64,000 nucleotides of DNA. Origin: Curtobacterium salicis (GTDB lineage Bacteria > Actinomycetota > Actinomycetes > Actinomycetales > Microbacteriaceae). The notes beneath the pieces are model-generated. The model was not told where the DNA came from. It made no database searches and saw only the letters and a list, made by a program, of their open reading frames with translations. Shown here piece after piece: positions 32,640 to 34,665 of the stretch. Location of the stretch: contig NZ_JAAOYO010000002.1 of NCBI RefSeq assembly GCF_011759505.1, positions 682,001 through 746,000 of the forward strand. Reading direction: 5' to 3'. The position numbers were made by a program, and so were the translations under genes. Each line of letters starts with the position of its first letter. The first letter of the stretch is position 1.

Positions 32640-32697
32640 CACACGACGGACGGGAGGCCCGGTGCCAGCTGGCACCGGGCCTCCCGTCCGTCGTGTG
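32640..32697. terminator. Perfect 58-bp palindromic terminator (GGGAGGC family)
   Basis: Arms 32640-32666 and 32671-32697 pair perfectly over 27 bp, and the central AGCT is itself palindromic. It stands 122 bases after the GH20 stop and 8 bases after the DUF262 gene stop, which reads toward it, so it can end both transcripts. The inner 32 bases (32654-32685) match the hairpin at 34567-34598 at 30 positions; the pair brackets the low-GC insertion. The intervening 32519-32639 is featureless. Confidence 0.85.
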
Positions 32698-32704
32698 TTT
32701 CCGT

Positions 32705-34504
32705 CTATGCCGTGAAGGCCCCAAAAACCCGCGCGTAGTCCGCCTGCTGCACCAGCACAGTCTGCGAACCGGCGCGCTCCCAGAGTTGTCCCTCGAAAAA
32801 GATGGGAGCGGCTAGTGCGCTGACCTTGAAGAGCAGGACGACTCGGCCTTCGTAGGGAACTAGCCGCGCGTTAGCAAGAACTTGGCTAAGAAGCGCGGGA
32901 TCAAGCCCCACTCCGGCCAATTTTTGAGTGATCCAATGCCAGTAGTCATTAAGCGGCTTTCCCGCTAGCAGCGCCTCTCGCTCCACTCCAACAACCAAAA
33001 ACTTTCGGTATTCGATAGCGTTCACACCGTCGAGTTCTTCCACTCGCTCGGCGTCTTTTTTATCGTCTGCAATCCCGACCGCTACGTAGCCAACAGCGCC
33101 TTTGCCCATGTTAGCCATCGCAGCCAGAGTCCGAGCAATGGTTGCCAAAGCGCCCGGGTCAAACTTTCTATCATTACTGGCCAGCGTGAAAAGCCCTTGC
33201 TTACAATCAAAGAGCTGCTGCTCGACCCGAGCATTTCCAAGCAAGACCTCGAGCTGACTCGCATAGCCAAAGGAGCCTAAATCATCCCCATCCACAGGCC
33301 CTTCGAACGACGATCGCAACACCCCTTTAACTGCATCTACGGTCGCGCGCTTGGACTTTGCAGTCCAGTCCCCACCGCCCCCCGGCACGTTGAGTGCGGC
33401 TCCTCCAATTTTCGTCAACGCCTTGACCGCTTTATCGACGTCGTTAAGTCGCAGGCGATCGACGTTAATCAACTCATAAAATGCAAGGAAAGTGATGTGG
33501 AAGTATCGCGGATTGCGCCCTCCCGGGCCCGCTCCAACGAGGTTCGAGAATTTCTTGTCGCTTTTTCTCACGACGGTCCGAACCGCATCATAGGCTCGCT
33601 TGAAGGCGATCTTGATTGCTCCTGCCCCCTTGAGATCGATAGACGCGGCAATCGCAACTGCTTCTGCAGACTCAGCGGAGTCGATGTCTCCATAGCTATA
33701 GTAAGCATCGCGCACACGGGTGCCAGAACTTGGAGTTGGCTCAATCGTGACGTCGATTAACAGATCAAGAATGAGTTGCTCGTCAAGGGATTCGCGCACG
33801 TCCTCGCGACGAAGGATGCCGTTCTCGACCCAGAAGATCTCATCTACCACGACTCCATAGTCGAGGTCGTAGTTGCTGATGCTCAGTTGAGGCATTCGAC
33901 GGAGCGGCACGGAATCGGTGGGAGAAGTGTCGCCTCGAATCTCGGAAGACAAAACGCGTACGAGATCTGCAAGCGACGATACTGTACCCGCCTGCCGAAG
34001 AGACTGCCGTGAAAGGCGGCGGCCGCCGGAATTGATCCTCCGGAAGACTTCTTCAATGCTCGCCTGATCCGCCGCCCGGTAGACCGACAATGCGACCGTG
34101 TAATTTACAAAGTCAGTTGATGCCTCGCGTTCGAGTTTAGGCTCTTTCTGCTCGAGCCTTCCCTCGTCTTTCATCAGTTTGGTATCAGCGAGCGCGTCAA
34201 GATCAAAGTACTTGCCATTGATCGGGTATTCGTTCTCCAAGAACGCAAAGATTGCGTTGAGCCTCTGGAGGCCATCAATCAGCTCCAAAGAGGCATCTGT
34301 ACCCGTCGTGAGTTCCGCTACGAGAAAGAGTGGTAAGGGGAGATCACGCAACATCGAGTCGACAAGCTTCTGTTTCTCCTCGACGCTCCAAACTAATTTT
34401 CTTTGGTAGCGGCGGTTGACTTCGAATCGATCTGCAATATATAGACCATACAGCCGTTGAACGCTTTCACTCCGAACCGCAAGGTCCTGCTCTACTCGTG
34501 CCAT
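32705..34504 (-). CDS. DUF262-AlbA_2 (Schlafen-like) fusion, putative defence protein, acquired
   Basis: The 599-residue protein begins with a DUF262 (ParB/GmrS-fold) domain: RRYQRKLVWS (31-40), ELIDGLQRLNAIFAF (74-88, DGLQR replacing the usual DGQQR) and FRRINSGGRRLS (154-165). A middle region of unknown fold (about 200-420) follows. From about 425 it looks like a Schlafen/AlbA_2 domain: EQQLFDCKQG (428-437), RTLAAMANMG (458-467), VAVGIADD (474-481), FKVSALAAPIFFEGQLWERAG near 570. DUF262 occurs in GmrSD-type restriction and AlbA_2 in Schlafen-like nucleases. Base composition is close to 50% GC against about 70% around it, and codons with A or T third bases are common. No partner gene is adjacent. 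TAGTCT lies 6 bases before ATG 34504. Confidence 0.8.
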   Translation of the reverse strand: MARVEQDLAVRSESVQRLYGLYIADRFEVNRRYQRKLVWSVEEKQKLVDSMLRDLPLPLFLVAELTTGTDASLELIDGLQRLNAIFAFLENEYPINGKYFDLDALADTKLMKDEGRLEQKEPKLEREASTDFVNYTVALSVYRAADQASIEEVFRRINSGGRRLSRQSLRQAGTVSSLADLVRVLSSEIRGDTSPTDSVPLRRMPQLSISNYDLDYGVVVDEIFWVENGILRREDVRESLDEQLILDLLIDVTIEPTPSSGTRVRDAYYSYGDIDSAESAEAVAIAASIDLKGAGAIKIAFKRAYDAVRTVVRKSDKKFSNLVGAGPGGRNPRYFHITFLAFYELINVDRLRLNDVDKAVKALTKIGGAALNVPGGGGDWTAKSKRATVDAVKGVLRSSFEGPVDGDDLGSFGYASQLEVLLGNARVEQQLFDCKQGLFTLASNDRKFDPGALATIARTLAAMANMGKGAVGYVAVGIADDKKDAERVEELDGVNAIEYRKFLVVGVEREALLAGKPLNDYWHWITQKLAGVGLDPALLSQVLANARLVPYEGRVVLLFKVSALAAPIFFEGQLWERAGSQTVLVQQADYARVFGAFTA

Positions 34505-34516: not shown

Positions 34517-34565
34517 TTGGCACGTCACGGTTTCGAACACCCGGTTTGTTCACCCCCAAACGGGG

Positions 34566-34599
34566 TGGAGGCCCGGTGCTACCTGGCACCGGGCCTCCA
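34566..34599. terminator. 14-bp hairpin nearly identical to the one at 32640-32697
   Basis: TGGAGGCCCGGTGC (34566-34579) pairs with GCACCGGGCCTCCA (34586-34599) around TACCTG. It is 66 bases downstream of fruA (minus strand) and is its likely terminator. Both this hairpin and 32654-32685 are followed at equal distance by TTCCGTC, so the similarity extends beyond the stem as an imperfect direct repeat of about 53 bp flanking the DUF262 gene. Confidence 0.75.
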
Positions 34600-34665
34600 A
34601 TTCGTTGCGCGGTTCCGTCACCGGCACACCGGCGTCAACACGGGACGCGAGCGTCTCGTATCTGA

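What the first reader, a model, noticed from the sequence alone, without database searches (positions are those of the whole stretch)
32705..34504. Low-GC DUF262-Schlafen (AlbA_2) fusion as a possible single-gene defence system
One 599-residue gene, near 50% GC in a 70% GC neighbourhood, joins a DUF262 domain (RRYQRKLVWS, DGLQR, FRRINSGG) to what looks like an AlbA_2 domain (EQQLFDCKQG, AAMANMG, VAVGIADD). DUF262 is known from GmrSD-type modification-dependent restriction and AlbA_2 from Schlafen-like nucleases; both occur in defence. The combination, with a diverged DGLQR in place of DGQQR and no partner gene, is unusual to me and may be undescribed. The foreign composition and lone position between metabolic operons fit a defence-island insertion.
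Basis: partly seen in the sequence, partly recalled or inferred. Interest (0 to 1): 0.78.

Follow-up and report, generated by a model that had tools for sequence, protein, structure and literature searches.

The report
Lone DUF262–Schlafen nuclease defence gene
A stand-alone bacterial gene joins a sensor domain known from DNA-restriction enzymes to a nuclease domain related to the Schlafen antiviral RNA-cutters of animals, and some of its relatives sit in viral spots where anti-virus genes collect, so it is probably a one-gene anti-virus system, as yet untested.

Summary
Window 32705-34504 (-) encodes 599 aa: an N-terminal DUF262/GmrSD_N domain (E 3.5e-20), a helical middle, and a C-terminal AlbA_2 (Schlafen) domain. 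For this protein alone the AlbA_2 match is sub-threshold (E 0.0014), but 25 of 27 intact family members match it, and the predicted fold's C-terminus aligns with AlbA_2 protein DIP2311, the SAMD9 tRNase domain and Schlafens. Acids at the presumed Schlafen catalytic positions (E428, D/E433, D/E480) are kept in 27 of 27; none of the 27 has a DUF1524/HNH match. The gene occurs in 1 of 66 genomes of its genus, between two copies of a terminator-like hairpin, at a site that is empty or holds another gene in some relatives.

The family is rare and mobile. Of 35 viral-contig copies, 10 lie at the gpA-gpQ locus of P2-like prophages, a published anti-phage hotspot; others lie on plasmids or beside a SIR2-HerA pair. 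Low GC is a family trait (26 of 26 loci), and DGLQR is a normal family motif.

Best reading: single-gene defence in which a DUF262 switch fires a Schlafen-type nuclease, probably an RNase. Substrate, trigger and activity are untested. A 2025 preprint on bacterial Schlafens, which I could not read, may already include it.

The parts
32705..34504 (-). DUF262-AlbA_2 gene, 599 aa, ATG start
   Evidence: one match at E<=0.001 in the whole genome, no stops inside
33989..34414 (-). DUF262 / GmrSD_N domain (residues 31-172), with NRRYQRKLVW (30-39), DGLQR (77-81; 34262-34276) and FRRIN (154-158)
   Evidence: Pfam PF03235 E 3.5e-20. Invariant in 27 members: N30, R31, Y33-L37, W39, D77, G78, Q80, R81, F154, R156-N158; R32, V38, L79 and R155 vary. 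Fold aligns with BrxU, SspE and ParB-family domains
33290..34009 (-). helical middle region (residues 166-405), candidate recognition or dimerisation part
   Evidence: AlphaFold2 of the part alone: pLDDT 85.0, pTM 0.86; no solved fold above Z 4.7 in a second look at Foldseek's 653 candidates, 650 of them aligned: inconclusive. The role is a guess
32708..33259 (-). C-terminal AlbA_2 / Schlafen-like nuclease domain (residues 416-599)
   Evidence: VIA-align Z 11.4 DIP2311, 10.0 SAMD9 tRNase domain, about 7 to 9.7 Schlafens; Pfam PF04326 in 25 of 27 members at E<=0.01
33065..33223 (-). predicted active site: E428 (33221-33223), D433 (33206-33208), K435 (33200-33202), D480 (33065-33067)
   Evidence: E428 27/27, D or E at 433 27/27, K435 27/27, D (23) or E (4) at 480; spacing as in SLFN13 E205/E210 and near SAMD9 E196/D241; equivalence is inferred from spacing and motif, not from a residue-level superposition
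32640..32697 (.). perfect hairpin (29-nt arms), terminator-like, on the 3' side of the gene
34560..34613 (.). second, diverged copy of the hairpin on the 5' side of the gene (core 34568-34597)
   Evidence: 60-nt direct repeat, 80% identical to 32646-32705; the only two places of this palindrome (up to 3 mismatches) in the 64-kb window

Best explanation
A mobile, single-gene anti-phage (or anti-mobile-element) system. Most likely steps: (1) the DUF262 domain binds and hydrolyses a nucleotide and, with the helical middle region, detects an infection cue; for several DUF262 relatives the cue is modified DNA. (2) Nucleotide turnover changes the protein's shape and releases the C-terminal AlbA_2 domain. 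(3) That domain cuts nucleic acid with an E428/D433/D480 carboxylate site; by analogy with Schlafen and SAMD9 domains the target is most likely tRNA or other RNA, which stops translation and aborts infection. Shown here: domain make-up, conserved motifs and acids, a fusion kept across the family without an HNH match, and a mobile or prophage-hotspot setting for many relatives. Inferred: steps 1 to 3, the substrate, the trigger and anti-phage activity.
For: Domains. Fold: residues 416-599 align with DIP2311 (Z 11.4, rmsd 3.1, 140 aligned), the SAMD9 tRNase domain (Z 10.0, 3.8, 144) and Schlafens 5, 14, 12, 11 and 13 (Z 9.7 to 7.0); the N-terminal part with BrxU (Z 8.7, 287 aligned, rmsd 12.6) and SspE (Z 8.0, 149, 4.5). 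Nucleotide-pocket and carboxylate positions kept in 27 of 27, with SLFN13-like and SAMD9-like spacing. Defence setting: gpA and portal genes on either side in 10 of 35 viral-contig loci, the hotspot of Rousset et al. 2022 (passages); P2-like prophage site between tail-completion and baseplate-V genes in two E. coli chromosomes; SIR2-HerA pair about 3 kb from the homolog in L094. Patchiness: 1 of 66 genus genomes, 4 full-length of 398 family genomes, 2 full-length of 396 phylum genomes, own genome included each time. Empty sites in relatives.
Against: No experiment, and I found no reported phenotype for a member. AlbA_2 domains can also be plain nucleic-acid binders. The catalytic acids were not placed by superposition, and PDB sequence searches gave no significant match to Schlafens. 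Several fold matches lie at or below Z 8, which the tool says may mean only a common arrangement, and the BrxU match has a large rmsd. P2 hotspots also carry genes not shown to defend. The window copy has no defence neighbour that I could see. Of 10 neighbour proteins scanned from five other relatives' loci, 2 hit PADLOC (the SIR2 and HerA of L094) and 8 did not. Of 84 flanking ORFs of 20 non-P2 viral loci, PADLOC hits outside methyltransferases were single members for AriA, Old, PD-Lambda-5_B, capP, PDC-M03A and HNH. No enrichment test against random genes was made.
Confidence: 0.5

Rival explanations
1. A Type IV-like restriction enzyme in which AlbA_2 replaces HNH and cuts or nicks (modified) DNA rather than RNA.
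For: The DUF262 proteins with known activity in the review passages I read (GmrSD, BrxU, SspE) act on DNA; the N-terminal fold aligns with BrxU, SspE and DndI; the SAMD9 AlbA_2 domain was solved with DNA (row 7ksp).
Against: The studied AlbA_2 folds with such a carboxylate site are RNases or are named so (SLFN13; SAMD9 'tRNase domain').
Confidence: 0.25
2. AlbA_2 is only a nucleic-acid-binding or regulatory module; the protein acts by binding (for example as a plasmid or prophage regulator) and has no nuclease activity.
For: NCBI names split halves in E. coli 'AlbA family DNA-binding domain-containing protein' or 'RNA-binding domain-containing protein'; AlbA_2 proteins are often annotated as regulators (recalled).
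Against: E428, D/E433, K435 and D/E480 are kept in all 27 members, which go down to 26% identity with the window protein; that is more than binding alone would seem to need.
Confidence: 0.15
3. A selfish or anti-plasmid gene with no real role against phages (for example one that raises the cost of rival plasmids).
For: Copies lie on IncF and other plasmids, and most E. coli plasmid copies seen are split, which suggests a cost or no benefit there; the DUF262-DUF1524 protein PFLU4242 causes plasmid fitness cost (passages).
Against: Presence at an anti-phage hotspot of P2-like prophages in at least four divergent lineages.
Confidence: 0.1

Closest known systems
GmrSD / BrxU Type IV restriction enzymes
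   Same: DUF262 N-terminal domain with a DGxQR motif; mostly a single polypeptide; N-terminal fold aligns with BrxU.
   Different: No DUF1524/HNH Pfam match at E<=0.01 in any of 27 members; an AlbA_2 domain takes that place.
SspE / DndI phosphorothioate-sensing nucleases
   Same: DUF262 module; SspE Z 8.0, DndI Z 5.9.
   Different: DUF1524 effector reported for SspE, no such match here; dependence on phosphorothioate genes not tested.
Schlafen and SAMD9/9L AlbA_2 domains (vertebrate antiviral)
   Same: AlbA_2 fold and three acidic positions at like spacing.
   Different: Fused to a DUF262 sensor; the other parts of the vertebrate proteins are absent; activity unknown.
Bacterial Schlafen defence proteins (Taboada et al., bioRxiv 2025, cited in PMC12839542)
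   Same: Schlafen-type nuclease in bacterial anti-phage defence, by the cited title and passage.
   Different: Preprint not held; whether it includes DUF262 fusions is unknown to me.
HEPN-DUF262-HNH fusion (VNG7073) listed by Anantharaman et al. 2013
   Same: A DUF262 (ParB-like) domain joined to an RNase-type (HEPN) domain was already listed from sequence analysis (passage, PMC3710099); the same paper lists a Schlafen-HEPN fusion.
   Different: HEPN in place of AlbA_2, and an HNH domain as well; the passages do not list DUF262 with Schlafen.
PD-T4-2 (A component) and PADLOC 'NsnA'
   Same: Best PADLOC hits, DUF262 part only: NsnA 7.8e-26, PD-T4-2_A 1.6e-18.
   Different: Only positions 49-214 of 385 and 40-192 of 363 are matched; no PADLOC model matched the C-terminal part of the window protein at E<=1.

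Membership tests
GmrSD-type Type IV restriction enzyme | DUF262 (GmrSD_N) domain with NTPase motifs | tested here: met
   PF03235 in 27 of 27 members; D77, G78, Q80, R81 in 27 of 27
GmrSD-type Type IV restriction enzyme | DUF1524 (HNH/His-Me) nuclease domain or a GmrD partner | tested here: not met
   no such Pfam hit at E<=0.01 in 27 members; no partner gene seen beside the window copy in the ORF list
GmrSD-type Type IV restriction enzyme | cuts modified DNA | not testable with these tools
   needs biochemistry
Schlafen / AlbA_2 nuclease | AlbA_2 fold | tested here: met
   Pfam PF04326 in 25 of 27 at E<=0.01; Z 7 to 11.4 with AlbA_2 structures; this protein alone is below Pfam's cut-off
Schlafen / AlbA_2 nuclease | three-carboxylate active site | tested here: inconclusive
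   acidic in 27 of 27 at residues 428, 433 and 480, at spacings like those; no residue-level superposition was possible
Schlafen / AlbA_2 nuclease | endoribonuclease activity | not testable with these tools
   needs biochemistry
PD-T4-2 defence system | A component matched over its whole length, with the B partner | tested here: not met
   PD-T4-2_A matched at positions 40-192 of 363 only; no other PD-T4-2 component among the hits of the 27 members
SspABCD-SspE / Dnd | phosphorothioate modification genes nearby | not tested
   no targeted search made
P2-like prophage defence-hotspot cargo | gene between gpA and gpQ (portal) near cos | tested here: not met
   not true of the window copy, which lies between a hexosaminidase-like and a PTS gene; true of 10 of 35 viral-contig relatives

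The most novel reading that the evidence does not exclude
A Type IV restriction sensor rewired to suicide: a DUF262 NTPase that recognises (modified) phage DNA and, in place of cutting it, switches on a fused Schlafen-type tRNase that shuts down translation. That would be a one-gene DNA-sensing, RNA-cutting abortive-infection system carried by P2-like prophages and plasmids and present in both actinobacteria and proteobacteria.
Probability: 0.35. Interest if true: 0.72.

Novelty: new variant of a known kind. Interest (0 to 1): 0.5.

Why it matters
The DUF262 proteins with known activity in the passages I read (GmrSD, BrxU, SspE) cut DNA; Schlafen domains are an RNA-cutting arm of vertebrate antiviral immunity. 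A fixed one-gene fusion of the two, carried by prophages and plasmids, would show that restriction-type sensing can be coupled to a Schlafen-type effector, give a small tractable model for how such domains are held off and fired, and explain a gene that 824 of 5,426 E. coli genomes match at DNA level, mostly broken, annotated as 'GmrSD restriction endonuclease domain-containing protein'.

Tried and rejected
NCBIfam gave no family. PDB sequence searches gave no significant relative; the weak hit 'CbCash' (E 0.12), aligned at the N465-D480 stretch, was not pursued. The phage collection had only partial matches, 0 of 58 matching records with 80% coverage, so the full fusion is known here from viral contigs, plasmids and genomes, not from named phage isolates. 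Genome contigs gave one relative, at 66% identity. The viral structure library gave 18 matches at E<=0.001, in the rows shown mostly DUF262/GmrSD N-terminal proteins of phages and giant viruses; none of the 50 rows shown is named as Schlafen or AlbA_2. The middle region alone gave no fold above Z 4.7: inconclusive, not evidence of a new fold. 'NsnA' could not be traced in the literature (three unrelated papers). A search for SIR2-HerA with Schlafen found 0 papers. 'Recent arrival from a low-GC donor' was rejected as the reading of the GC dip. A target-site duplication or a named transposon at the window copy was not established: the hairpin is a genome-wide motif (53 places at up to 3 mismatches, control 1), so recombination between terminators is only a guess. 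PADLOC scan of 84 flanking ORFs (120 aa or more, up to four on each side) of 20 of the 35 viral loci gave few defence hits other than methyltransferases; the alignment tool returns counts, so I do not say which locus holds which.

A2 has 27 sequences: the window protein, L016 and 25 of the 35 viral-contig members. Left out: L026 (99.9% like L025), L040 and L057 (genes identical to L039), L036 and L059 (cut by a contig end), and L052, L053, L055, L056 and L058 (frame broken). The plasmid and E. coli relatives L017-L019 and the genome relatives L002-L004 are in A1 only; L021 is in neither.

One search shows that it lies inside that domain, at the codons equivalent to K435-G437. I also moved two membership rows to stricter verdicts and added the 2013 HEPN-DUF262 listing.

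Full report
WHAT IS THERE. One ORF fills 32705-34504 on the minus strand, 599 aa with an ATG start. It is the only match in its genome, which is 3.49 Mb in 7 contigs. Its GC is 0.546; the rest of the window is 0.725, and no 1.8-kb window outside the gene falls below 0.655. It lies between a hexosaminidase-like gene (+, ends 32518) and a PTS gene (-, ends 34666); these neighbour names rest on recall from the translations.

DOMAINS. Pfam finds GmrSD_N/DUF262 at residues 31-172 (E 3.5e-20) and a sub-threshold SLFN_AlbA_2 match at 429-488 (E 0.0014, 19.5 bits, cut-off 25.3). PADLOC hits of this protein cover the DUF262 part only: NsnA 7.8e-26, PD-T4-2_A 1.6e-18. To test the weak half I built a family: a first set of 8 (A1) and then 27 intact members (A2), made of the window protein, the Mycolicibacterium komossense relative (66% identity) and 25 of 35 viral-contig members. 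At E<=0.01, GmrSD_N matches 27 of 27 and SLFN_AlbA_2 25 of 27, best 2e-10; the only other families are two single-member hits, and no DUF1524/HNH family appears.

FOLD. AlphaFold2 with A2 gives mean pLDDT 84.1 and pTM 0.79. In VIA-align, a second look at Foldseek's candidates, residues 416-599 align with DIP2311 (Z 11.4, rmsd 3.1, 140 aligned), SAMD9 with DNA (Z 10.1), the SAMD9 tRNase domain (Z 10.0, rmsd 3.8, 144) and Schlafens 5, 14, 12, 11 and 13 (Z 9.7, 9.5, 8.4, 7.2, 7.0). The N-terminal part aligns with BrxU (Z 8.7, 272-287 aligned, but rmsd about 13), SspE (Z 8.0), DndI (Z 5.9) and ParB and sulfiredoxin folds (Z about 4.6 to 6.7). The tool warns that Z under 8 may mean only a common arrangement. 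Foldseek itself reports E<=0.001 only for three DIP2311 chains, and BrxU at 1.4e-3. The viral structure library gives 18 matches at E<=0.001, mostly DUF262 proteins in the rows shown, none named as Schlafen. The helical middle (166-405) folded alone is confident (pLDDT 85.0, pTM 0.86) but has no match above Z 4.7, which is inconclusive.

RESIDUES. In 27 of 27 members: N30, R31, Y33, Q34, R35, K36, W39, D77, G78, Q80, R81, F154, R156, I157, N158, E428, K435, G437, N465, G477. R32, V38 and R155 vary. Position 79 is L in 20 and M in 7, so DGLQR is normal for this family. Position 433 is E in 19 and D in 8; 480 is D in 23 and E in 4. In SLFN13 the carboxylates E205, E210 and D248 are needed for nucleolytic activity (passages, PMC5862951); in SAMD9 the triad is E184, E196 and D241 (passages, PMC11221667). 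E428-D433 have the SLFN13 spacing of 5, and D433-D480 (47) is close to SAMD9's E196-D241 (45) and longer than SLFN13's E210-D248 (38). This is a match of spacing and motif; I had no residue-level superposition.

INSERTION. The gene is in 1 of 66 genomes of its genus. The neighbouring hexosaminidase gene was found in 49 of 60 genus genomes and 30 of these loci are held, 29 from other genomes. In 15 of these 29 the PTS gene lies convergent within the stretch held: in 10 the gap is 87-308 bp, and in 8 of those 10 the script detects one hairpin of the type described next; in 5 the gap is 499-1353 bp. In 14 of 29 the PTS gene was not found within the stretch held. I fetched longer stretches for 7 of the 29. 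In five (L098, L100-L103) the gap holds a different, GC-rich ORF of 342-363 aa (its type, an NAD-dependent sugar epimerase/dehydratase, is recalled); L099 and L104 hold 653 and 722 N and could not be read there. In the window the gene sits between two copies of a hairpin, 32640-32697 and 34560-34613, the only two in 64 kb. The hairpin is a genome-wide motif, 53 places at up to 3 mismatches against 1 for the reversed control, so terminator-to-terminator recombination is a plausible but unproven route in. This is a strain-specific insertion at a variable spot, not part of a defence island that I could see.

GC. In 26 of 26 family loci (L016 and 25 viral contigs) the gene is poorer in GC than its own flanks, by 12 points on average; the same holds in seven further loci. 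The dip is a trait of the family and does not date the transfer.

SPREAD. Full-length relatives: 4 of 398 family genomes, own included (11 more have only a DUF262-part match); 2 of 396 phylum genomes, own included (3 more DUF262-part only); 144 of 72,556 plasmid records at 80% coverage or more, at least one of which (NZ_CP141089.1) is a chromosome in RefSeq; 35 viral contigs, not all intact; 0 of 58 matching phage records at 80% coverage. In E. coli, 824 of 5,426 genomes match the IncF-plasmid copy at DNA level but only 133 hold 80% or more of it in one place. I saw 40 of 875 rows, taken at even steps: in 32 the match stops or starts at bases 1276-1284 of the gene, and of 5 full-length rows one holds IS elements inside. 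Those bases are the codons equivalent to K435-G437, inside the AlbA_2 domain and between the presumed catalytic acids. In the record that I opened, IS1 elements follow the break.

DEFENCE SETTING. Ten of the 35 viral-contig copies (L028, L033, L037, L038, L039, L040, L042, L051, L056, L057) lie between a P2-like gpA and a portal (gpQ) gene, not always as direct neighbours (identities by PHROGs on representatives). L037 shows only 89 matched residues of gpA; the copy in L056 is frame-broken; L059 has gpA on one side and is cut by the contig end. L039, L040 and L057 have identical genes, L042 is 97% like them at protein level, L038 and L051 are 95% alike, L033 and L037 73%, and L028 is about 31% from the rest, so at least four lineages occupy this locus. 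Rousset et al. [quoted passage not shown] Two E. coli chromosomes carry the same protein (one accession) at another P2-like site, between the tail-completion and baseplate-V genes; L027 has both of these flanks and L036 and L052 one each. In L094 a SIR2 gene and a HerA gene (PADLOC E 2.3e-101 and 1.8e-225) lie about 3 kb from the homolog, with a resolvase-like gene between. In L096 a phage integrase lies about 5 kb away, and in L016 a CHAT protein and a resolvase-like gene lie nearby.

AGAINST. Of 10 neighbour proteins from L093, L094, L016, L018 and L096, 8 had no PADLOC hit at E<=1e-5, and three from L093 had no Pfam hit either. A scan of 84 flanking ORFs of 20 non-P2 viral loci gave, outside methyltransferases, single hits to AriA, Old, PD-Lambda-5_B, capP, PDC-M03A and HNH, some possibly the same protein. 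No enrichment test against random genes was made. The window copy has no visible defence neighbour. No activity is known to me.

MECHANISM. From DUF262 relatives (GmrSD, BrxU, SspE; passages, PMC10952713): nucleotide-dependent change coupled to recognition of modified DNA. From AlbA_2 relatives: RNA cleavage or translation block. The simplest joint model is a sensor switch plus suicide RNase. DNA cleavage by AlbA_2 is the main rival. PFLU4242, a DUF262-DUF1524 protein, shows that such proteins can also make resident plasmids costly (passages, PMC8544851 and PMC11637435).

NOVELTY. Searches for DUF262 with Schlafen (1 paper), DUF262, AlbA_2 and defence in pairs (18: 28 papers, 20 listed), Schlafen with phage defence (36: 7), bacterial Schlafen terms (37: 3), Schlafen with abortive infection (78: 12), GmrSD, Schlafen, AlbA_2 or SLFN in pairs (79: 810, 15 listed) and Schlafen with ParB (107: 5) showed no paper that, from the listing or the passages I read, describes this fusion. 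The nearest in print is a 2013 listing of HEPN fused to DUF262 and HNH (passage, PMC3710099). The library lacks preprints and most subscription papers. PMC12839542 (passages) reports Schlafen RNases near BREX loci and cites a preprint on bacterial Schlafens that I could not read. I therefore rate it a new variant of a known kind.

Noticed in passing
E. coli plasmids, e.g. L092:3419-5478 (NZ_AP027171.1): The IncF-plasmid copy next to repA and pemIK is broken in 32 of the 40 rows seen, at bases 1276-1284 of the gene, inside the AlbA_2 domain; in the record opened, IS1 elements follow. Intact copies exist.
   Followed up: partly
window 32640-32697 and 34560-34613: Two copies of a genome-wide terminator-like palindrome bracket the gene; the empty site of several relatives carries one.
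   Followed up: yes
L098, L100, L101, L102, L103 (between the hexosaminidase and PTS genes): The same intergenic site holds a different ORF of 342-363 aa in other genomes of the genus, so it is a small variable spot.
   Followed up: partly
the 26 family loci counted: The gene is poorer in GC than its surroundings in every one, by 12 points on average, at flank GC from 0.30 to 0.64. Why is unexplained.
   Followed up: partly
L094:2551-5414: SIR2-HerA pair, with a resolvase-like gene, about 3 kb from the homolog.
   Followed up: yes
L091:9992-11767 and L090:9001-10776: A second P2-like prophage site, between the tail-completion and baseplate-V genes, holds the gene; in L091 the portal gene is followed by a RES-family gene.
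   Followed up: partly
L016:6513-9092: CHAT-domain protein of 860 aa and a resolvase-like gene beside the Mycolicibacterium relative.
   Followed up: no
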